From positions 1 through 55,923 of IMG/VR virus record IMGVR_UViG_3300032053_000094: 55,923 nt of DNA. One strand, written 5' to 3'. Below the pieces are notes generated by a model. The model saw only the letters and a list, made by a program, of their open reading frames with translations. It was not told the origin of the DNA and did not search any database. A program made the translations under genes and the position numbers. Positions 442 through 43,071 of the stretch are shown here, piece after piece (the stretch's first letter is position 1; every line of letters begins with the position of its first letter). The DNA is from a virus.

Positions 442-1704
442 ATGAGTAGAATAGAAGAAATTAAAAAAAGAGTTGATAAATCAGATAATGTTTTATTATT
501 TGATAAACATGAATTAGATTCTTTAAAAAAGATTACTAAAACAACCAAAATTAGCGAGTATGAAGTTTTAACGGATGATGGTTTTATTGATATAGAAGCA
601 TTGCATGAGACAATACCATATGAAGTATATCATCTTAAATTAAGTGATGGAAAAGAGCTTAAATGTGCTGATAACCATATTGTATTTGTTTCTGAATATC
701 ATGAAACTACTTCTGAACCAATTGGTTTAATCGAAGTATTTGTTAAAGATTTACAAATGGGTTCGTTTGTTATGGTATCAGATAATAATGGTAACCTAAC
801 AGAATCAGAAGTTATTGAAGTAACCAATTTAGGTTATGAAGAGATAATGTATGACCTTGAATTAAAAGAAGGTTCTAATAGACGATATTATACTAATGGA
901 ATTTTAAGTCATAACACATACCTTGCAAAACAACTGGCAAAAGAAATTTTTGGTAGTGAGGAAGCATTAATACGTATGGATATGTCAGAATATCAAGAAA
1001 AACATACGGTATCCCGTTTAGTTGGTGCTCCTCCAGGATATGTCGGATATGATGAGGGTGGACAATTAACTGAACAAGTTAAGAATAAACCATACTCAGT
1101 AATATTGTTTGATGAGATTGAAAAGGCAAATAAAGATATATTTTCAGCTCTACTTCAAATGTTAGATGATGGTCATATGACAGATGGTTTAGGTCGTAAA
1201 ATTAATTTTAAAAATTGCATCATTATTATGACATCTAATCTTGGTATTAAAAAAATGCAAGATTTTGGAAATGGTGTTGGATTTACAAATGCAAATAACG
1301 TATTTGCAAATGAAGAATTAAGAAAAGACACACTTCAAAAAGAACTTAAAAAATTCTTTTCTCCTGAATTCTTAAACCGTATTGATGATATTGTTGTTTT
1401 CAATTCTTTGAAACAAAATGATGTTGATAAAATTGTGAAAATTGAAATAGAAAAACTAAAAACAAGATTAGACGGTATCAACTATTTCATAACATTTGAT
1501 AAGTCAATTCAAGAAATGATATCAAAAGTAGGTTTCGATGAAATGTATGGTGCAAGACCATTAAAAAGAGCAATCCAGGATAAGGTTGAAGATTTTATAT
1601 CTGAAGAAGTTCTTAAAGGTAATATTAAAGAGTACACAAAATATACCTTAAAAACTACTGATGGTGAAACATTGCAAGTGTCTAAAAATAAAAAAGGGAG
1701 TTAA
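442..1704 (+). CDS. ClpC-like AAA+ C-terminal half preceded by the C-part of a split intein
   Basis: 420 residues. Residues ~36-158 look like an intein C-part: a block-B-like segment KCADNHIVF with His79 and a C-terminal block YYTNGILSHN ending in His157-Asn158, followed by Thr159 as the +1 residue. Thr159 is the Thr of a D2 Walker A (GVGK|T), after which the sequence is a Clp D2 domain: pore loop GYVGY 199-203, Walker B DE 224-225, VGF 279-281, arginine finger SPEFLNR (Arg313) and sensor-2 GARPLKR. No Cys1 block and no N-extein GVGK precede it, so the missing half must come from a separate gene. Layout and motifs resemble atypically split (AceL/VidaL-type) inteins, where a short N-intein is encoded elsewhere. 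The VGF loop matches the ClpP-docking loop position of ClpC and argues against ClpB. A decayed intein is the alternative. Confidence 0.85.
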   Translation: MSRIEEIKKRVDKSDNVLLFDKHELDSLKKITKTTKISEYEVLTDDGFIDIEALHETIPYEVYHLKLSDGKELKCADNHIVFVSEYHETTSEPIGLIEVFVKDLQMGSFVMVSDNNGNLTESEVIEVTNLGYEEIMYDLELKEGSNRRYYTNGILSHNTYLAKQLAKEIFGSEEALIRMDMSEYQEKHTVSRLVGAPPGYVGYDEGGQLTEQVKNKPYSVILFDEIEKANKDIFSALLQMLDDGHMTDGLGRKINFKNCIIIMTSNLGIKKMQDFGNGVGFTNANNVFANEELRKDTLQKELKKFFSPEFLNRIDDIVVFNSLKQNDVDKIVKIEIEKLKTRLDGINYFITFDKSIQEMISKVGFDEMYGARPLKRAIQDKVEDFISEEVLKGNIKEYTKYTLKTTDGETLQVSKNKKGS

Positions 1705-11887: not shown

Positions 11888-12097
11888 TTTAAAAAAAATA
11901 ACACCCTAATTTATCCAACTTACAGGTGTATTGGCTGTCCCCCAATACGGGGTTAGGAATAATCATTCGTCTTCACGAAGTCGAGCTGACTTGCTCAGGA
12001 GTTATCCCCTTCACTCCAAAGTAGGTCCCCATACGGACATCACTCCGTTTCTCATCATGTAGGGTACATTATCCGTTGTCATGTTTCGGAACGTGTA
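11888..12097 (-). ncRNA. Structured untranslated segment at the 3' end of the tRNA unit
   Basis: About 200 nt without a gene. On the minus strand it contains successive hairpins: ATGTA-CCC-TACAT, ACGGA-GTGATG-TCCGT, GAGC-AAGTCA-GCTC, TTCGT-GAAG-ACGAA and GTATTGG-GGGACAG-CCAATAC, ending with ACACC...GGTGT and a run of eight T. None gives a canonical tRNA. It resembles in position the stable non-tRNA RNAs of the T4 tRNA cluster. Likely a co-transcribed stable RNA; family not recognised. Confidence 0.5.
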
Positions 12098-12166
12098 GTC
12101 TCATCAAGAATCGAACTTGAATCTACTGCTTAGAAGGCAGTCGTTCTATCCGTTGAACTATGAAAC
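12097..12166 (-). tRNA. tRNA-Arg (TCT)
   Basis: Acceptor GTTTCAT/ATGAGAC; anticodon stem ACTGC/GCAGT with loop CTTCTAA (anticodon TCT, reads AGA). T-arm CAAGTTCGATTCTTG. AGA is a common codon in this AT-rich genome. Confidence 0.88.
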
Positions 12167-12174
12167 CTAATAGT

Positions 12175-12278
12175 ACAAGAGGAAGGACTTGCACCTTCAT
12201 GCTGTTACCAGCGAGGGCATGTTACCCTTGTGTCTTTCTACTGATGATGGTACCACCATCTACTTCCACCACTCTTGT
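12175..12278 (-). tRNA. Aberrant type-II tRNA-like element (Leu/Ser-like)
   Basis: Acceptor ACAAGAG/CTCTTGT, T-arm GAAGG-TGCAAGT-CCTTC, and a long variable arm GCTG-GTAA-CAGC as in Leu/Ser tRNAs. The D-stem GTG/CAC encloses about 34 nt containing an extra hairpin (GATGGTG/CATCATC). The anticodon arm AGGG-TAACATG-CCCT lacks U33, so no anticodon can be assigned safely. Either a pseudo-tRNA or a tRNA-shaped stable RNA. Confidence 0.5.
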
Positions 12279-12287
12279 AAAAAACTG

Positions 12288-12359
12288 CGGTCTCAGCGGG
12301 AATCGAACCCGCCACATTCCCGTGACAGGGGAATATTATAACCAATTAACTATAAGACC
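12288..12359 (-). tRNA. tRNA-Asp (GTC)
   Basis: Acceptor GGTCTTA/TGAGACC, anticodon stem TTCCC/GGGAA with loop CTGTCAC (GTC), T-arm GCGGGTTCGATTCCCGC. Confidence 0.92.
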
Positions 12360-12365
12360 TTGAAA

Positions 12366-12504
12366 AAAGGAAAACAGAAGATGGGTCAGTGGACATCTGT
12401 TTTTATGATTGGCGTTACTCCGTATTTGAAGGATTGTCTCCTATTACCCCTCCGATTAATAACTGTTTCTAATGTTACCACCATTATCTATCTTTCCCCA
12501 ATCA
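12366..12504 (-). ncRNA. Second tRNA-like structured element with adjoining hairpin
   Basis: GATTGG/CCAATC ends (12407-12503) enclose a sequence with a GGTGGTAACATTAGAAACAG stretch like that in the element at 12175-12278, a TATTA/TAATA stem with a 10-nt G-rich loop, and a TTCAAAT T-loop-like string. It does not fold into a standard cloverleaf. A further hairpin AAAACAG..CATC..TGTTTT lies at 12371-12405. Family unknown. Confidence 0.35.
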
Positions 12505-12512
12505 ACCTTTTT

Positions 12513-13151
12513 TTATTTTATAATTCTACCCTTACTCCAACCTTCAGGTATTAAACTATCTTTTTTTATTTTTTTGTTTTCATCACCATTTGTTATCCAA
12601 CAAGTACCGTATTGTGAATTTTTTTCACCATTTTGTTTTATTTTATTTTTATCTCCTATTTTTCTTTTATGTTCCTCACTAATATTTTTATTTTTAGTGG
12701 TACTATAATTTATGACACCTTTTTTATGGTTTTTTATAGTATTTTCTATTAAAATCTTGATAATTTTTTTTCTAAAATCATTGTTTTTCCATTTCTCTAT
12801 CATATAGTCAGATGCTCCTTTACGAATCTTATCTAAAGTTTTTTTTGGTAACCCAATTAATCCTCCAGTTCCACCCTCTTTTAGATTCATACATAATCCA
12901 TCATTAACTAAATCAATATTCACTATTTTTTTTTCATGTTCAAGTAACGATTCTCTTGAATCAAAAAAATTTAAAATTTCTTTAGAATGATTCTCAATAC
13001 CATATTTTCTGATACTATATCTTAATCTTTTCCCACTACCTAAATAACCATCATCAATATTTGTTGTCGAATGAATTCCAATATAAAATCTATTGGTTAT
13101 TTTACAGGTTGTTTTATACATATAATGTATTTTCTTTTTTTGTCTTGGCAT
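12513..13151 (-). CDS. GIY-YIG homing endonuclease
   Basis: 212 residues. The N-terminal GIY-YIG domain reads MYKTTCKITNRFYIGIHST..DGYLGSG (Y-Y pair as MYK/FYIG), followed by IRKYG and a middle helix. C-terminal DNA-binding modules include ISEEHKRKIGDKN (NUMOD3-like) and WITNGDENKKIKKDS..PEGWSKGR. It lies inside the tRNA array between tRNA-Glu and the tRNA-like element, the classic location for such mobile genes. Nearly the same first 50 residues recur in the enzyme at 28075-28683. Coding-strand CATATTTATTAT is upstream of the ATG. Confidence 0.92.
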   Translation of the reverse strand: MPRQKKKIHYMYKTTCKITNRFYIGIHSTTNIDDGYLGSGKRLRYSIRKYGIENHSKEILNFFDSRESLLEHEKKIVNIDLVNDGLCMNLKEGGTGGLIGLPKKTLDKIRKGASDYMIEKWKNNDFRKKIIKILIENTIKNHKKGVINYSTTKNKNISEEHKRKIGDKNKIKQNGEKNSQYGTCWITNGDENKKIKKDSLIPEGWSKGRIIK

Positions 13152-13198
13152 AATTATCTTTTATAATAAATATGCTCAAGGTACAAAAAAGTTCAGGG

Positions 13199-13270
13199 TA
13201 CCACGGACGGGAATCGAACCCGTGACTCTTCCGTGAAAGGGAAGCGTCTTAACCCCTTGACCACCGCGGC
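13199..13270 (-). tRNA. tRNA-Glu (TTC)
   Basis: Acceptor GCCGCGG/CCGTGGT (two G-U pairs), anticodon stem CTTCC/GGAAG with loop CTTTCAC, T-arm ACGGGTTCGATTCCCGT. Confidence 0.92.
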
Positions 13271-13272
13271 AT

Positions 13273-13401
13273 TTAATTTTTTTTATTATCTAAAATTTCA
13301 TTAATAACATTTTTTGCGTTTTTAATTTCATCTTCAGGTAAAGCCCAAATAAACAAAGAAATTAAAATAAAAACTGTTACAAAATAGAGTATTGTTACCA
13401 T
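13273..13401 (-). CDS. 42-aa single-pass membrane peptide
   Basis: Start ATG at 13401, stop 13273-13275. MVTILYFVTVFILISLFIWAL forms one TM helix (split here: 20 residues then L), followed by an acidic/basic tail (PEDEIKNAKNVINEILDNKKN). It lies between tRNA-Glu and the next small gene. No family recognised; supported by the clean frame and Asn/Lys-rich codon use like neighbours. Confidence 0.5.
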   Translation of the reverse strand: MVTILYFVTVFILISLFIWALPEDEIKNAKNVINEILDNKKN

Positions 13402-13417
13402 ATTATTTTTATTTTAT

Positions 13418-13759
13418 TTATAATCCTTTTGTTATCCAATTACACATTGCATTTGACATTGAGATATCTTCCTTTGACATATTAAACATTTCTTCCTCGG
13501 TCATTACCGTTACACCGCCATAACTTGATATAGTATGGTTAGGATTGTTGGTATAAACATCTACAATCCCGTTATCGCCACTATATTCATCACAGATGTC
13601 CTGAACCGAAAACTCATTTTTATGATTACTCCAACGTATGGAACCATAACACCTTAATTCGGTTAAATATATAAACCCATCAGAGGTGTCTAATATCTCC
13701 TGATAAAGTTTGTTGGCTTTGTTTTTAGCCCTCACATAATTTTTAATTAATTGTTCCAT
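13418..13759 (-). CDS. 113-aa hypothetical protein, probably leaderless
   Basis: The start at 13759 (MEQLIKNYVRAKNKANKLYQ) is chosen because a perfect host-type promoter (TATCTTTG) ends 4 nt before this ATG; the longer frame would begin upstream of the transcript start. Residues ~25-100 include RCYGSIRWSNHKNEF, VQDICDEYSGDNGIVDVYTN and SSYGGVTVM: a mixed alpha/beta domain with no known match. Located inside the tRNA cluster but with its own promoter. Confidence 0.7.
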   Translation of the reverse strand: MEQLIKNYVRAKNKANKLYQEILDTSDGFIYLTELRCYGSIRWSNHKNEFSVQDICDEYSGDNGIVDVYTNNPNHTISSYGGVTVMTEEEMFNMSKEDISMSNAMCNWITKGL

Positions 13760-13763
13760 AACA

Positions 13764-13795
13764 CAAAGATATAAAACCTTTTTCAAACAAACAAA
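13764..13795 (-). promoter_or_regulatory. Host-type promoter, leaderless start
   Basis: Coding strand TTTG, 20 nt, TATCTTTG; the G is 4 nt from the ATG at 13759. Confidence 0.75.
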
Positions 13796-13805
13796 ACTTT
13801 TTTTG

Positions 13806-13878
13806 AGCCCAAGATAGGAATCGAACCTACAACCTTCACTTTACAAAAGTGCTGCTCTGCCAATTGAGCTACTCGGGC
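13806..13878 (-). tRNA. tRNA-Thr (TGT)
   Basis: Acceptor GCCCGAG/CTTGGGC, anticodon stem CACT/AGTG with loop TTTGTAA (TGT), T-arm GTAGGTTCGATTCCTAT. Confidence 0.92.
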
Positions 13879-13885
13879 ATGTTAG

Positions 13886-13957
13886 TGTGACAGCGGGATT
13901 CGAACCCTGATTAACTGAACCACAATCAGTCGTGTTAACCTTTACACTACAGTCACC
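13886..13957 (-). tRNA. tRNA-His (GTG)
   Basis: Anticodon stem ACTGA/TCAGT with loop TTGTGGT (GTG); acceptor GTGACTG/CTGTCAC with one T-T mismatch; the extra G-1 expected for His is present at 13957; T-arm CAGGGTTCGAATCCCGC. Confidence 0.9.
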
Positions 13958-13962
13958 ATATG

Positions 13963-14034
13963 CACGCATGTAAGGACTCGAACCTTCATCTTCGGTTTTG
14001 GAGACCGACATTCTACCAATTGAACTACACACGC
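13963..14034 (-). tRNA. tRNA-Trp (CCA)
   Basis: Acceptor GCGTGTG/CATGCGT (several G-U pairs), anticodon stem CGGT/ACCG with loop CTCCAAA (CCA), T-arm GAAGGTTCGAGTCCTTA. Confidence 0.9.
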
Positions 14035-14043
14035 ATTTTATTG

Positions 14044-14115
14044 AGGTCAGAATCAGATTCGAACTGATGTAAAAGGTTTTGCAGACCTTCGCCTAAACCA
14101 CTCGGCCATCCGACC
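14044..14115 (-). tRNA. tRNA-Cys (GCA)
   Basis: Acceptor GGTCGGA/TCTGACC, anticodon stem AGGT/ACCT with loop CTGCAAA (GCA), T-arm ATCAGTTCGAATCTGAT. Confidence 0.92.
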
Positions 14116-15505: not shown

Positions 15506-15635
15506 TAATTAAACTTTTTACAAAATTATATAGTGATAAAATAGCAATCATTATTGCTATTCCCGCAATAGAATAAATAACCATTTTTTCACTAAACTCT
15601 ACTTGGTCTTTTCTTTTTCCTTGGTAATTGTTCAT
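15498..15635 (-). CDS. 45-aa single-TM protein
   Basis: MNNYQGKRKDQVEFSEKMVI.. with a TM helix VIYSIAGIAIMIAILSLYNF and a short tail ending SLINE. The start is supported by a host-type promoter (TACTTTTG) 14 nt upstream. First gene of the leftward small-membrane-protein operon. Confidence 0.65.
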   Translation of the reverse strand: MNNYQGKRKDQVEFSEKMVIYSIAGIAIMIAILSLYNFVKSLINE

Positions 15636-15649
15636 ATATTATTTTTAAA

Positions 15650-15681
15650 CAAAAGTAAAATAAAAAAAATTAATAAACAAA
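15650..15681 (-). promoter_or_regulatory. Host-type promoter of the small-membrane-protein operon
   Basis: Coding strand TTTG (15678-15681), 20 nt, TACTTTTG (15650-15657). Back to back with the ClpP promoter. Confidence 0.75.
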
Positions 15682-15691
15682 TGTATTTTGA

Positions 15692-15723
15692 TTTGTTTGT
15701 AAAATATATTCTTCATATCTTTG
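15692..15723 (+). promoter_or_regulatory. Host-type promoter of the ClpP gene
   Basis: TTTG 15692-15695, 20 nt, TATCTTTG 15716-15723; ATG at 15747. Confidence 0.8.
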
Positions 15724-15746
15724 TCAAACAACCAAAAAATTTAAAT

Positions 15747-16427
15747 ATGGATTACGGAAAAGAATTTAAATCGTATTACACGAAACACCTATATAAACCA
15801 TCAAGTAATTTGGACAATTATTCGTCTCAAATTCAAGGTTCACTAACTCCTTATATCTTAGAAGAAAGAGAAATGAGGGTAACTCAAATGGATATATTTT
15901 CAAGATTAATGAGAGAACGAATTTTGTGGGTTGCGGGCGAAGTTAATGATAATATGTCAACAATAGTTCAGGCTCAACTAATGTTCTTAGATTCTGTTGA
16001 AAATAACGACATAACAATGCATATTGATAGTCCTGGAGGTTCAGTTAAGTCAGGGTTGAGTATGGTTGACGTTATGCAGTTCATTAAGTCCGATATAAGG
16101 ACGATTAACACAGGTATGGCAGCTTCTATGGGGTCAGTACTACTTGGGGCAGGAACGAAAGGAAAACGGTCCTCATTACGTTTCTCACGTACTATGTTAC
16201 ACCAATCATCAGGTGGGTTCAGAGGTAATATTCAAGATGCTGAAATTGACATGAAAGAATGGGTTAAAATTAATGACACATTATTTCAGTTACTTGGGGA
16301 TTTTTGTGGTAAGACTATGGAACAAGTTAAGGTTGACGCTCAACGAGATTTGTGGTTAAGTAGTTCTGAATCACTTGAGTATGGTATTATTGATGAAATT
16401 GTTAAAACAAAAAAAGGAGGTGTTTAA
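15747..16427 (+). CDS. clpP: ClpP-like serine protease
   Basis: 226 residues from the ATG at 15747, chosen because the promoter lies between it and the longer upstream frame. ClpP fold with intact triad: nucleophile Ser127 in GMAASMGS, His152 in TMLHQSSGG, Asp201 in QRDLWLSS; oxyanion SPGGSV (95-100) and YGIID near the end. It has a ~40-residue N-terminal extension compared with mature E. coli ClpP. ClpP forms tetradecameric chambers fed by AAA+ unfoldases; the ClpC-like half at 442-1704 has a VGF docking-type loop. T4-like and other phages use ClpP relatives as prohead proteases, but this sequence is closer to cellular ClpP. Early or middle expression is suggested by the host-type promoter. 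Confidence 0.9.
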   Translation: MDYGKEFKSYYTKHLYKPSSNLDNYSSQIQGSLTPYILEEREMRVTQMDIFSRLMRERILWVAGEVNDNMSTIVQAQLMFLDSVENNDITMHIDSPGGSVKSGLSMVDVMQFIKSDIRTINTGMAASMGSVLLGAGTKGKRSSLRFSRTMLHQSSGGFRGNIQDAEIDMKEWVKINDTLFQLLGDFCGKTMEQVKVDAQRDLWLSSSESLEYGIIDEIVKTKKGGV

Positions 16428-31107: not shown

Positions 31108-32199
31108 ATGAACAAATTACTAAAGGAAGTGTCTAAAATAAAAAACATTATAAATAATGTTAATGAAAGTGTTAGTGAAAATCACATTAAAAAAATTAAA
31201 GATTTATTAAATTTTAATAATATGATGACTCTTTCAATTCAGAATGATTTAGATGAAATTGTTAATATTAGTAGTGAACAAATTATTGATTTTGATTTGA
31301 TGGAAAGAAGTTTAAAAAAAGTATTGCTTAAAAAGGGAAATAAAAAAAAGAATGTTGAATCTTATCTTAGTAAAATTGTAAACTCATTACTAACAAGAGA
31401 CCGAGGAGTATATAATGTAGAACCTGAAAGTGATGACTATGAGTTTGAACCTCAAGAACCATCAATTGTTCCTAAAAAGGTTTATAGAAAAGAATTATAT
31501 GGTCTACAAGTAGAACTGTTAAAGCTAGAAGAATGGTTAATGAAGACAAACAGAACTGTAATCATAGTTTTTGAAGGTCGAGATTCTGCAGGTAAAGGGT
31601 CAACAATTAAAAAATTTACAGAGAATATGAATCCTAGAGGTTATAAAGTAATTGCTATGGGTATTCCAACACCTGAGGAAAGAAAAAATTGGTGGCAACG
31701 ATATGAATCTCAAATTGAAAAAGGAAAAATGAATTTATTTGATAGAAGTTGGTATAACAGAGGTTTAGTTGAACCTGTAATGGGTTATGGTAGTGACGAA
31801 GAATATAAAGATTTTATGGATAATGTTGAGGATTTTGAAAATGCTTTAGTTAAAGACGGTGATTTTTTATTTAAATTATGGTTTTCAATTGACAAAGAAA
31901 CTCAGTCTAAAAGATTTGAAATGAGACAAAAATCACCATTAAAATACTGGAAATACTCTCCAAACGATTCAAGAATGCAAGATTTATGGGATAGATTTAC
32001 AGAATTTAAAGAAAAGTTATTTGATAAAACATCAACATTAAACAATCCTTGGGTTATTGTTGACTCTGTTGATAAAAAAGTGTCAGGTCTTAACGCTATA
32101 AGATATGTATTAAAAAATATTCCTTATGAAAATAAGAATGAAGAATTTTTAAATAAAGAATACCCCGAAGCTTTAACTATTTTAAATCCAGAAAATTAA
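31108..32199 (+). CDS. ppk2: Polyphosphate kinase 2 family enzyme with N-terminal tag extension
   Basis: 363 residues. Residues ~128-355 are a PPK2 domain: Walker A EGRDSAGKGS (156-165), NPRGYKVIAMGIPTPEE, lid WWQRYE, Walker B-like NLFDRSWYNRG (209-219), FKLWFSIDKE and KYWKYSPND. PPK2 transfers phosphate between polyphosphate and nucleoside mono/diphosphates. The first ~120 residues are extra: a leader (LLKEVSKIKNIINNVNESVSEN) of the shared tag type, helices and an acidic linker (VEPESDDYEFEPQEP). A virion-packaged NTP/NDP-regenerating enzyme is possible. Class (ADP- or AMP-phosphorylating) cannot be told by eye. Confidence 0.9.
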   Translation: MNKLLKEVSKIKNIINNVNESVSENHIKKIKDLLNFNNMMTLSIQNDLDEIVNISSEQIIDFDLMERSLKKVLLKKGNKKKNVESYLSKIVNSLLTRDRGVYNVEPESDDYEFEPQEPSIVPKKVYRKELYGLQVELLKLEEWLMKTNRTVIIVFEGRDSAGKGSTIKKFTENMNPRGYKVIAMGIPTPEERKNWWQRYESQIEKGKMNLFDRSWYNRGLVEPVMGYGSDEEYKDFMDNVEDFENALVKDGDFLFKLWFSIDKETQSKRFEMRQKSPLKYWKYSPNDSRMQDLWDRFTEFKEKLFDKTSTLNNPWVIVDSVDKKVSGLNAIRYVLKNIPYENKNEEFLNKEYPEALTILNPEN

Positions 32200-38562: not shown

Positions 38563-38832
38563 ATGAAAGAAATGTTGGAACATTTACTAAATAATATTCG
38601 AAAAGAAGAATTGAATTTACTTTTTGGTGAAGGAAGTAAGATTAATGTTGATTCCATATCCTATTCAACAAATAATAAAACGTATGTAATTCATTCTACG
38701 GTATTTGTTACTGACATTGAAGAATCAATTCAATCTTTTCCAGATGGTCTTGATTTTTTAATTACTGAAAGTTGGAAATACACAGGATTTAATAATGAGT
38801 TAACAATCATCAACAGTATTGATATTATTTAA
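38563..38832 (+). CDS. 89-aa small alpha-beta protein
   Basis: N-terminal helix MKEMLEHLLNNIRKEELNLL, then strands KTYVIHSTVFVTDIEESIQS and a final INSIDII. The pattern helix, polar loop, strand, helix, strand matches the family of small proteins in 52-56 kb. TATTTAT-type element only 4 nt before the ATG. Overlaps the convergent LRR/WCT gene by 4 nt. Confidence 0.65.
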   Translation: MKEMLEHLLNNIRKEELNLLFGEGSKINVDSISYSTNNKTYVIHSTVFVTDIEESIQSFPDGLDFLITESWKYTGFNNELTIINSIDII

Positions 38833-40640
38833 ACCCCTGGTTTTCTAGCATAAAAACCTGACCCTGGTATTTCTTCTTTATAGAAATTCTCAAAACCTTC
38901 AGGAAATTCAGGATTAGTACTTTGTAAATTAATAAACTTAACGTTCTTTAATAGTAAAATAGATTTTGGTAGTTTTTTTAAATTTGGATTATTCGGTAAG
39001 GCTAAAAATGTTAAATTTTGTAATGAACCAATTTCTTCAGGTAGTTCTGAAACACACTTCATTAATAACAATGCCTCCAAATTTTTAAACCTACTAATAC
39101 TACTAGGTACTGACAAATTAATATTATCGTCCGATTTATTATTAAATAGGAAATTGGTAATATTATTTGGTAAACTCTCAAATAAATTTCCAAACCCGTA
39201 CAATGCCGCAAATTTTGCTGAAGGCCCATTAGGGTATTCAATTTCTATTTTATTACCTGACGTACCTGAACCCATTTCACCAGCAAATTTTGATTTTAAC
39301 TCTTCTTTTAATTTTTTAAGTATTGGAGTATTCAATAAAGCAATTTCAGTAGAAGTTAAATTTTTAATATTGGTAGTTTTAATTGAATCTATTTTTTTAC
39401 TAACATAATACTTAATAACTTCAGGTTCGGAATTTTGTATCATACTACTGGTTAAATCCATACCTAAGGCAATATATTTCTTTTTTAAATTAATATCTAA
39501 ATTGGAAAACTGTATGTCCGTTAGTCTAGGACTATTGTATTCTAACCACATTTCGACCTCTTGTGGGGACTTAAAACTTTCCATAGGATTATCACCTACT
39601 CTAGCATTTTTTACCACGTTAATCAACTCCTTTTCTTGTACTGTTAATGGTTCTGGCTTAAAGATGGATTTTAAATTTGCTAATTTTGGTAATTTTTTAA
39701 CTATGTCATTCCAAGGAACATTACTATGTCCACTATATGTACCTGAATTAGAACCATCCGCTAAAGACATTCCTCCGTTAGGGTCAACAAGTACAACACA
39801 TGCAAAGTTTAAATCGTCAAAACCTTTATCTTCATCTATAACATAATATAGAGTTCTTTCATTTCCTAAACGATAATTGTAATACATATTACCACCACCC
39901 TCTCTACTTGTACACCAGCTTCTACCATTTCTTAATTTAATACATTGGTCTTTTGTTTTTGGTGCAAATATTTTAAGATTATTCTCGTCATATTTCATTG
40001 CAATATCAGACAAATCTTTACTTTTATTTTGAGTACTTTTCTTTTCCCCACTTATCCCATCAATTAAGTGTTCAAACTCAACAAACGTCATATCATCAAC
40101 TCTTTTACTATCAGAAGGAATTTCATCCAAAATTTCAAAATAAGAACCAATATAAAATAAAACTTGGTCTTGTGTTAATTCAGGATTTTCCTTCATGAAT
40201 TTTTCAGATAGTTTTTTACTAATTAATTTTGGATAAACATCATCAACCATTTTAACCAACTCTAAAAATTTATAGTTGGTTATATTTTTTTTAGATGCTG
40301 GTAAAAGAGATTCAATCTCTAAAAATCTTTTAATATAATTTTTAAGTGCGGTGTTTTCTATCTTAGATTCTTTTTTCTTAAATTCAGTAAAAATATTGCT
40401 CATTATTTTTGATGATAATCTAGATTTAATAATATTTTTTAAATCATCGTAAGAATATTTCATAATATCCCTTTTATCAGCTGGTAGTCCTGATTTAATG
40501 GTTTCAAATGAATCTATATAAGATATCATAGTCTCAGGTGTATCTTCAGTACTAGTACCCCATTTAGAAACTAATTGTTTTTTAACTTTTTCTGACACCT
40601 CATTAAGAAGTGTGGTTTTCAATACGCTAAGTAATTTCAC
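38829..40640 (-). CDS. WCT-motif protein with triple N-terminal repeat and C-terminal leucine-rich repeats
   Basis: 603 residues, GTG start at 40640 (GTGAAATTACTT; no ATG nearby). Leader MKLLSVLKTTLLNEVSE (LLNE tag-like). Residues ~20-195 are three repeats of ~61 aa, each with an YI..[YF]..I..xLPx[SD]xK[RK] core (~41-60, 102-121, 163-182). Then GRSWCTSREGGGNMYYNYRL and LYYVIDEDKG (WCT domain, ~238-330), and at the C-terminus LRR units (LPEEIGSLQNLTFLALPNNP, LKKLPKSILLLKNVKFINLQ). Acts presumably as a recognition or assembly protein. TATTTAT-type element 40656-40663. Confidence 0.75.
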   Translation of the reverse strand: MKLLSVLKTTLLNEVSEKVKKQLVSKWGTSTEDTPETMISYIDSFETIKSGLPADKRDIMKYSYDDLKNIIKSRLSSKIMSNIFTEFKKKESKIENTALKNYIKRFLEIESLLPASKKNITNYKFLELVKMVDDVYPKLISKKLSEKFMKENPELTQDQVLFYIGSYFEILDEIPSDSKRVDDMTFVEFEHLIDGISGEKKSTQNKSKDLSDIAMKYDENNLKIFAPKTKDQCIKLRNGRSWCTSREGGGNMYYNYRLGNERTLYYVIDEDKGFDDLNFACVVLVDPNGGMSLADGSNSGTYSGHSNVPWNDIVKKLPKLANLKSIFKPEPLTVQEKELINVVKNARVGDNPMESFKSPQEVEMWLEYNSPRLTDIQFSNLDINLKKKYIALGMDLTSSMIQNSEPEVIKYYVSKKIDSIKTTNIKNLTSTEIALLNTPILKKLKEELKSKFAGEMGSGTSGNKIEIEYPNGPSAKFAALYGFGNLFESLPNNITNFLFNNKSDDNINLSVPSSISRFKNLEALLLMKCVSELPEEIGSLQNLTFLALPNNPNLKKLPKSILLLKNVKFINLQSTNPEFPEGFENFYKEEIPGSGFYARKPGV

Positions 40641-41001: not shown

Positions 41002-41418
41002 ATGGAACACCAAAATTCAAATAAAGGAAAATCAAATAACGGTAATACGTTTGAAAAAGAATTTACACAATTAACAGGTATTAAAAAAATGATGAAAAAA
41101 CAAAAACCTACTTTTGTTAATTCACATGGGTTAACACAAGTTGTTGATTTTGATTTTAAAACTGAAATAAATAATGTGCCAGTTTTTATTGACGTAACCA
41201 CAACTTATAGAAGTGATAGATTAAAACAAAAATCATATAATGCCTTAATGATGAAGACTAAAGTTGGGACACCATGTAAGTTTTATATGGTTGTTAAAAC
41301 TATGGTTGAGAATGGGAAAAAGAAAAACCCCATCTTAATTGAAGGTATAGATGGGGTTTTAAGTATTTCTGATTTTATGTTATTAATTGGTGTTAACAGT
41401 GTACCCGTTACCAATTAA
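41002..41418 (+). CDS. Possible PD-(D/E)xK nuclease-like protein
   Basis: 138 residues. NTFEKEFTQLTG, then VVDFDFKTEINNVPVFIDVT and TTYRSDRLKQKSYNALMMKT: acidic strands (DFDF, FIDVT) followed by a basic helix recall the PD-(D/E)xK core, with the Glu/Asp-x-x after a hydrophobic strand; the usual Lys could be Lys in the RLKQK helix. Not certain. A hairpin (41323-41360) lies inside the 3' coding part. The tail overlaps the LRR/PKD gene by 36 nt. Confidence 0.5.
   Translation: MEHQNSNKGKSNNGNTFEKEFTQLTGIKKMMKKQKPTFVNSHGLTQVVDFDFKTEINNVPVFIDVTTTYRSDRLKQKSYNALMMKTKVGTPCKFYMVVKTMVENGKKKNPILIEGIDGVLSISDFMLLIGVNSVPVTN
41323..41360 (+). terminator. Hairpin within a coding 3' end
   Basis: AAAAACCCCATC, 15-nt loop, GATGGGGTTTT. 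It overlaps codons of the 41002-41418 gene; almost the same stem occurs at 53461-53500. Confidence 0.4.
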
Positions 41419-43071
41419 AGTTGTTATAGCTGCTAAACCATCTGGAGGTCCTACTGTTGGTCCAGCATTTCCTGTTCCGTCTAGATATAAATTACCACCA
41501 GCACTTGTCAATATATTACTTAGGTAATATAATGTGTTGTTTGTTCCTGCGGTAGTAAATAAATTATCCTGTAAAGATAAATAAGTTATAGTTGTTGGTA
41601 TGTTAGGTGTTGGATTAAAGATGATTAAACTATTGTTACTTAAATCTAAATTAAGTAGACCATTAGGTAATGCGATAGTTGGGTCAAATGTTGTTAAACC
41701 ACTTTGACCAAATGTTCCCATATTACTACCAACACCACCATAAGGTTTATTATCACTAAAATCTAAATTTACTAATGATGATGGTAATGCGACAGATGGG
41801 TTATAAGTTGTTAATTCTGTATCGTACGCTTCAATATTATATATTTTAGTCGTAGTTAAAATACTAGATGCTGACCATACTGGTGTAGTTCCTGTTGCGA
41901 TAAAAACACATCCATCGGTATTAATAGTACCACTTTGTATATTTGCAACACTACTAAAACTATCACTAGCATTATATTTTTGAATTGTATATTCTCTACC
42001 AATAGTCAAAGTTCCACTTGTTTGGTTTTGAGTAAACACAGGATTAAATGAGGTTAAAGGATTTGTATATACATATAAATCCTGTAAACTATCTGGTAAA
42101 TTAATATCGAATGATGTTAAGCTATTATCAAAAATACTTAGATTATTTAATTCTGAATTTATAATATCAAATGTTGGATTAAATTCAGATATTTTGTTAC
42201 TACTTAAATACAAGCTATTAAGACTGTTTGGTATTGCATAATTAAATGGAGATGTAATACCTCCATTTTCACCTGGAACTCCATATCCATAATAAGATGA
42301 TGGATAATTACCTCCACAACTACCGATACTAAAATAATTTAAATTAGATGGTAATGGTTCTAATAATGTGAGTGTTTTCAAGTAGTAGTTATCACTAATA
42401 TCAAAATCGATTAAAGAATTAGGTAATAAATAAGATGGTGTAAATGATGTTAACCAGTTATCATCCAAATACAATTCTTCTAATATTGGTGACAATGGTG
42501 CCGAAAGAGTATCAAAACTAGTTAATATACATTTTTCGATATATAAAAACTCTAATGATGTTAAAAATTCACATCCATTAACTTGAGTTACTGGCATATT
42601 ATATATGTTTAATTCGTTAACTTCATTAAAATTATCAAAAGTAACTATAATAATGAAAGTACCGTTACTTAAATATGTGTGAGTAGGATTCATATAAGTT
42701 CCAGTATACGTATCGGTATTACCATCACCCCAATCAACAGTACAATTTGTACTATTATTCAAATAGATATCAAAATCCATTTCATTTCCTGGATTACCAC
42801 TCTTATAGAAATTATTCGAAGTATCGGAACTGAATTGAATTTCAATTGCTGGTATTCTTTGACATGCGGTTGGTGACGGGAACGGAGAAATTGAATTAAC
42901 AATTTCAATGTCACCATCTTTTGAGAAGGTTCCATCAACAAACCAAATATTTTTATATGACCCTTGGTCTATTCCGATATTATTGAATTCCATATTATCA
43001 GAACATCTTCTGTAGCTAAATTTAGCTAAAGAACTTCCATTATTTGTTAAAGTGTATTTACTACAAGACAT
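41383..43071 (-). CDS. PKD-domain plus BspA-like LRR protein (putative tail fibre / adhesin)
   Basis: 562 residues. N-terminal ~70 residues (MSCSKYTLTNNGSSLAKFSY, GIDQGSYKNIWFVDGTF) look like a fibre-attachment cap. Residues ~95-155 carry a PKD-like fold (WGDGNTDTYTGTYMNPTHTY). From ~155 to the end there are irregular leucine-rich repeats of the type LxLSxNxLxxFNPxxxLPxSLxxL, as in BspA-like surface proteins. Strong candidate for a receptor-binding or fibre protein. An upstream ATTTATTATAAAAT lies near the start. Confidence 0.75.
   Translation of the reverse strand: MSCSKYTLTNNGSSLAKFSYRRCSDNMEFNNIGIDQGSYKNIWFVDGTFSKDGDIEIVNSISPFPSPTACQRIPAIEIQFSSDTSNNFYKSGNPGNEMDFDIYLNNSTNCTVDWGDGNTDTYTGTYMNPTHTYLSNGTFIIIVTFDNFNEVNELNIYNMPVTQVNGCEFLTSLEFLYIEKCILTSFDTLSAPLSPILEELYLDDNWLTSFTPSYLLPNSLIDFDISDNYYLKTLTLLEPLPSNLNYFSIGSCGGNYPSSYYGYGVPGENGGITSPFNYAIPNSLNSLYLSSNKISEFNPTFDIINSELNNLSIFDNSLTSFDINLPDSLQDLYVYTNPLTSFNPVFTQNQTSGTLTIGREYTIQKYNASDSFSSVANIQSGTINTDGCVFIATGTTPVWSASSILTTTKIYNIEAYDTELTTYNPSVALPSSLVNLDFSDNKPYGGVGSNMGTFGQSGLTTFDPTIALPNGLLNLDLSNNSLIIFNPTPNIPTTITYLSLQDNLFTTAGTNNTLYYLSNILTSAGGNLYLDGTGNAGPTVGPPDGLAAITTLIGNGYTVNTN

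What the first reader, a model, noticed from the sequence alone, without database searches (positions are those of the whole stretch)
442..1704. Atypically split intein at the D2 Walker A of a ClpC-like phage unfoldase
The gene encodes only the intein C-part (block-B-like CADNHIVF, C-terminal YYTNGILSHN) and then starts the extein exactly at the Walker A Thr (GVGK|T) of a Clp D2 domain. It has no Cys1 block and no N-extein, and a 35-residue leader precedes the intein part. The long C-part with a missing short N-part is the layout of AceL/VidaL-type split inteins, so active Clp would require trans-splicing of two phage proteins. The insertion point is the catalytic P-loop, as is common for inteins.
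Basis: partly seen in the sequence, partly recalled or inferred. Interest (0 to 1): 0.85.

Follow-up and report, generated by a model that had tools for sequence, protein, structure and literature searches.

The report
Phage Clp unfoldase stitched from pieces
A phage gene makes only the back half of a protein-unfolding machine, capped by half of a self-splicing "intein", and related viruses show that a neighbouring gene makes the matching front half, so the machine's ATP pocket exists only after the pieces (two here, three in some relatives) are joined protein to protein.

Summary
Window 442-1704 encodes an intein C-part (leader aa 1-27, core 28-158, ending YYTNGILSHN) followed directly by the ClpC D2 domain, starting at the Walker A Thr. 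The window is a virus contig cut at base 1 and holds no N-half. In related IMG/VR contigs that cover the upstream side, a same-strand N-half lies 0-2 kb upstream. It ends GVGK|C plus about 28-40 intein residues and a stop. The gap usually holds an EDxHD/Vsr-like homing endonuclease gene: the known "fractured gene" layout with an atypically split intein.

One relative (L093) carries the same intein uninterrupted. This shows that the "leader" is the old internal linker. An AlphaFold model of it matches inteins (VidaL first). IntC is under strong purifying selection. It is 91% identical to a relative whose extein is only 50% identical, while the nearest extein (92%) has no intein, so the element is mobile.

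New here are the host protein (ClpC, with a ClpP gene in the same window) and the same intein family at both P-loops (D1 and D2). Some phages therefore encode ClpC in three pieces. Splicing is inferred, not shown.

The parts
442..1704 (+). C-half gene of a split ClpC: IntC + D2 domain (420 aa)
442..522 (+). Leader (aa 1-27), remnant of the intein's internal linker
   Evidence: aligns with the linker of contiguous L093
523..915 (+). Intein C-part core (aa 28-158), from LKKITK to SHN
   Evidence: alignment A1; intein profile hits
664..678 (+). Block-B-like CADNH
   Evidence: invariant in A1
886..915 (+). C-terminal splicing block YYTNGILSHN; the catalytic Asn codon is 913-915
916..918 (+). Thr+1 codon = Walker A Thr, first C-extein residue
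916..1701 (+). C-extein: ClpC D2 AAA module after GVGK, plus D2-small domain
   Evidence: PF07724 and PF10431; PDB ClpC match
1276..1284 (+). VGF tripeptide at the ClpP-docking loop position
   Evidence: sequence, and alignment to S. aureus ClpC; function inferred
15603..16427 (+). Phage ClpP, probable partner of spliced ClpC; the true start is probably internal to this ORF
   Evidence: PF00574 2e-58; catalytic residues aligned; partnership inferred

Best explanation
The gene is the C-half of a 'fractured' phage clpC. Its product is IntC (leader plus about 131 aa) followed by the ClpC D2 domain. A second protein, encoded just upstream and off this contig, carries the rest of ClpC up to GVGK and then a Cys1 IntN of about 28-40 aa. 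IntN docks on IntC to complete the Hint fold. Cys1 makes the N-S shift, the chain moves to Thr+1, the terminal Asn cyclises, and GVGK is joined to T, which creates the D2 Walker A P-loop. Spliced ClpC then probably works with the phage's own ClpP. The element spreads between phages by an EDxHD homing endonuclease that sits between the halves in most relatives. Shown by sequence: the layout, conserved residues, homology, selection and mobility. Inferred: the splicing reaction, the N-half of this particular phage, endonuclease activity, and the ClpP partnership.
For: C-part and exact Thr boundary; intein-less orthologues continuous through GVGKT. N-halves with GVGK|C...(D/E)T-type IntN and stop found upstream, same strand, in the split relatives. 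Endonuclease ORF in the gap: DUF559/MTES_1575 matches, I-Bth0305I profile hit 4e-4, fold match with TM 0.69 to that structure. Contiguous version L093, one 1019-aa ORF. AF2 model of the intein, pLDDT 76, matches VidaL at 4e-8, with Z about 11-14 to inteins. Purifying selection on IntC: dN 0.05, dS 0.82, window vs L079. Mobility: IntC 91% vs extein 50% identical to L079, while L011 has a 92% identical extein and no intein. ClpP in the window.
Against: No N-half is visible for this phage, and no overlapping contig was found. No splicing data exist. The block-B position three before the His is Ala, not the usual Thr. The AF2 alignment held only 61 partial rows, and the linker is of low confidence.
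Confidence: 0.88

Rival explanations
1. Degenerate intein: an inactivating split left two dead fragments and the C-half is a pseudogene, with the host's or another Clp taking over.
For: No N-half in the window. Some relatives have a decayed endonuclease (L003, L009).
Against: IntC is under strong purifying selection and keeps every terminal splice residue; the C-extein is also constrained. Both halves remain open in phages with divergent exteins.
Confidence: 0.05
2. The C-half acts alone without splicing, for example as a regulatory ATPase-dead D2 subunit, and the intein part is a folding cap.
For: The C-half is a free ORF with its own start codon.
Against: Without GVGK it has no P-loop. N-halves with complementary IntN are linked wherever the upstream side is visible. 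Cys1, SHN and Thr+1 are retained.
Confidence: 0.04
3. Assembly or metagenome artefact: chimeric contigs joined at a repeated intein.
For: Inteins are mobile and could confuse assembly; all the data are uncultured contigs.
Against: The same order recurs in 20+ contigs with different IMG/VR accessions, with different gap sizes and diverged coding sequence.
Confidence: 0.02

Closest known systems
Atypically split inteins AceL-TerL, GOS-TerL, Cat, VidaL, PolB16 OarG
   Same: Short IntN and long IntC, with a Hint fold. GOS-TerL is 37+115 aa and Cat is 30+104 (PMC11766414). IntC profile hits CatC at 6e-7, and the model's best Foldseek match is VidaL. A related IntC is in a terminase (L114).
   Different: Host protein is ClpC. 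+1 is Thr, where the TerL inteins have Cys (PMC11766414). IntC carries a leader and, in some members including the window, an insert of about 10 aa.
Fractured genes (Dassa et al. 2009, doi 10.1093/nar/gkp095; recalled, paper not held)
   Same: A gene broken by a split intein, with a free-standing Vsr-like/EDxHD endonuclease between the halves, in phages.
   Different: As I recall, those hosts were DNA synthesis and repair enzymes. Here the host is a protein unfoldase, and some genes are fractured twice.
P-loop inteins of phage terminases (TerL1-a, PMC5050341)
   Same: Insertion between the invariant Lys and the Thr of Walker A.
   Different: That paper does not discuss split inteins; here the element is split and lies in ClpC D1 and/or D2.
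I-Bth0305I (EDxHD homing endonuclease, 3r3p)
   Same: Nuclease domain homologous to that of the gap ORF.
   Different: I-Bth0305I is an intron endonuclease; here the gene is free-standing between intein halves, with long helical stretches before the nuclease domain.

Membership tests
Intein (Hint splicing domain) | Sequence and fold homology to known inteins | tested here: met
   PDB profile hits; fold hits dominated by inteins, VIA Z up to 14.4
Intein (Hint splicing domain) | Terminal Asn preceded by His, and Ser/Thr/Cys at +1 | tested here: met
   SHN|T invariant in A1
Intein (Hint splicing domain) | Cys/Ser/Ala at position 1 with block A | tested here: inconclusive
   Met in relatives' N-halves; off-contig for the window's phage
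Intein (Hint splicing domain) | Protein splicing activity | not testable with these tools
   Needs expression and mass spectrometry
Atypically split intein | Break near the N-end: short IntN, long IntC, on separate genes | tested here: met
   In relatives IntN about 28-42 aa and IntC about 115-138 aa plus leader. Published range 15-25 aa (PMC12707363), but GOS-TerL is 37 (PMC11766414)
Fractured gene | Free-standing homing endonuclease gene between the two halves | tested here: inconclusive
   Met in most relatives; decayed or absent in L003, L009, L092, L109; not visible for the window
EDxHD homing endonuclease (gap ORF of relatives) | Homology to I-Bth0305I or Vsr, with conserved acidic and His residues | tested here: met
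   Profile hit 3r3p 4e-4; Foldseek rank 2, prob 1.00, TM 0.69 on the target, though E 0.09; invariant E410, D423, E434, H441. DNA cleavage not tested
ClpC/ClpB class I Clp ATPase | D2 AAA+ module with D2-small domain | tested here: met
ClpC/ClpB class I Clp ATPase | D1 module and intact D2 Walker A in one chain | tested here: inconclusive
   Only after ligation to the unseen N-half; intact in intein-less relatives

The most novel reading that the evidence does not exclude
In three-piece relatives (L009, L090, L108) the two split inteins are paralogues (IntN 32-44%, IntC 55-67% identical within one genome). Cross-pairing could therefore yield protein-level alternative splicing: the N-domain joined directly to D2 (skipping D1, with a chimeric P-loop GVGK|T still intact), or a circularised D1 fragment. 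The phage would then make several Clp machines from one locus.
Probability: 0.08. Interest if true: 0.88.

Novelty: new variant of a known kind. Interest (0 to 1): 0.55.

Why it matters
It extends fractured genes and atypically split inteins to the Clp unfoldase. In some phages the same intein family breaks both ATP pockets of one protein, so a hexameric motor must be built from two or three separately translated pieces. It supplies more than 20 natural IntN/IntC pairs (Cys1/Thr+1), including pairs that must coexist in one cell, which is useful for orthogonality studies. It also provides a series of empty site, contiguous intein, split intein with endonuclease and split intein without endonuclease, for testing how split inteins arise.

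Tried and rejected
An exact 22-mer from the window's 5' end found no other viral contig, so the N-half of this phage could not be fetched. tblastn of all N-halves and endonucleases against the window gave no N-half or endonuclease near the gene. Window ORFs 3-251 (UVR motif) and 253-417 have no clear counterpart in the relatives' gaps and are not intein parts. Named phages: 441 records match the D2 part; none of the 40 best listed covers the intein. The bacterial and archaeal genome scan for the IntC family gave none. No paper in the held library was found that discusses a split intein in ClpC. Dassa 2009 is not held and is cited from memory. The query was an approximate, hand-typed ClpC D1 sequence, so I rely, which uses the real L019 protein. 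A first attempt at the structure alignment used wrong frames. Frameshift and intron readings were rejected because intein-less orthologues read straight through the exact GVGK|T junction and the inserted letters are an intein. Whether the D1 or the D2 site was invaded first could not be decided, because the terminase root is a long branch.

Full report
Observation. The ORF at 442-1704 is real and as described. Residues 158-408 match ClpC D2 (6em8, 1e-76), but the AAA_2 match begins at profile position 16, that is, after the P-loop Lys. The residues before it end YYTNGILSHN and match the Pfam intein model weakly (9e-6, below its cut-off). A profile from relatives hits solved inteins clearly: CatC 6e-7, gp41-1 1e-6, VidaL 0.005. 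The window is a linear virus contig that begins 441 bp before the gene, and the N-half is not in it.

Relatives supply the missing half. A scan of IMG/VR gave 60 related loci. Many are intein-less ClpC genes of about 675 codons that read GSTGVGK-T without a break. Others have the same split. In each split locus whose contig covers the upstream side, an ORF on the same strand encodes the rest of ClpC. It ends GVGK, then an intein N-part that starts with Cys and runs about 28-40 aa to a stop. A second scan with the IntC alignment brought the set to 30 representative loci, the window included.

What lies between the halves. In most loci it is one ORF of about 390-510 aa with a C-terminal nuclease domain carrying invariant E, D, E and H residues. 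Its profile hits I-Bth0305I (4e-4) and more weakly Vsr. An AlphaFold model, confident in parts only (pTM 0.30), ranks I-Bth0305I second (prob 1.00, TM 0.69 on the target, E 0.09). This is the EDxHD homing endonuclease family (PMC3943268). In L003 the ORF has decayed to 91 codons. In L009 a cytosine methyltransferase gene and a remnant are there instead. L092 and L109 have no endonuclease.

Contiguous form. L093 carries the same intein in one 1019-aa ORF. Aligned with 60 halves, its N-part matches the IntN tails, its C-part matches IntC, and the stretch between them matches the 'leader' of the window protein. The leader is therefore the former internal linker. An AlphaFold model of this intein (pLDDT 76) matches VidaL first (4e-8), with VIA Z of about 11-14 to several inteins. 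Whether L093 is the ancestral form or a re-fusion is open.

Selection and mobility. Window IntC against L079 has dN 0.05 and dS 0.82, so it is under strong purifying constraint. It is 91% identical to L079, whose C-extein is only 50% identical; the closest split exteins (L003, L092) are 71%. The closest extein of all (L011, 92%) has no intein. Across 253 pairs, IntC identity exceeds extein identity in 231. IntN plus endonuclease show dS of about 0.1-0.7 between phages whose exteins show dS of about 1 or more. The cassette is moving between phages.

Both P-loops are targets. Nine loci have the same family at the D1 Walker A. The D1 inteins form one side of a branch in the IntC tree (92/79 support, 94% of bootstrap trees), which suggests one transfer between the two paralogous P-loops. 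Direction is unresolved. L009, L057, L059, L090 and L108 carry splits at both sites and so encode ClpC in three pieces. L108 has an endonuclease in each gap. In L057 and L059 the last piece is off-contig, and the L057 D2 IntN may be part of a contiguous form. L005 and L098 are three-piece with a different split intein in D1 at GEPG|CGKT, with an IntN of 24 aa. L094 has a contiguous intein starting with Ala and with a LAGLIDADG-like insert at the D1 site, plus the D2 split. Lys|Thr of the P-loop is the 'classic' intein site (PMC5050341).

Function. The window also encodes ClpP with its catalytic residues kept, and the D2 half keeps a VGF tripeptide at the ClpP-loop position. A phage ClpCP protease assembled by trans-splicing is the likely product (inferred). 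The phage's target is unknown.

Novelty. The mechanism class is known: atypically split inteins (PMC11766414, PMC12707363, PMC10189870) and fractured genes (Dassa 2009, from memory). I found no paper in the held library describing one in ClpC. Twofold fracture of one protein by one intein family appears new to me, but the literature searched was partial (one search found no natural case). Splicing itself was not tested.

Noticed in passing
window 15603-16427 (+): Phage-encoded ClpP with conserved catalytic Ser, His and Asp, about 14 kb from the split clpC half.
   Followed up: yes
window 31108-32199 (+): Polyphosphate kinase 2 (PPK2, 6.6e-72), which seems unusual in a phage.
   Followed up: no
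L009, L090, L108: Three-piece clpC: same split-intein family at both P-loops; L108 has a separate endonuclease gene in each gap.
   Followed up: partly
L005 6822-8760; L098 1605-4651: A second, distinct atypically split intein in ClpC D1 at GEPG|CGKT (Cys1, Cys+1; IntN 24 aa), coexisting with the D2 split intein.
   Followed up: partly
L094 1303-4212: Contiguous intein starting with Ala, with a LAGLIDADG-like insert, at the D1 GVGK|T site of a clpC that is also split at D2.
   Followed up: no
L009 8694-9635: A C5-type cytosine DNA methyltransferase gene occupies the gap between the clpC halves next to an endonuclease remnant (by sequence inspection).
   Followed up: no
L114 484-2334: Related IntC in front of a terminase large subunit, with an EDxHD-like endonuclease C-terminus upstream; links this family to AceL/GOS-TerL inteins.
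   Followed up: partly
window 12095-14115 (-): Cluster of seven tRNA genes: Arg, Asp, Glu, Thr, His, Trp, Cys.
   Followed up: no
window 38829-40640 and 41383-43071 (-): Two large leucine-rich-repeat proteins, function unknown.
   Followed up: no
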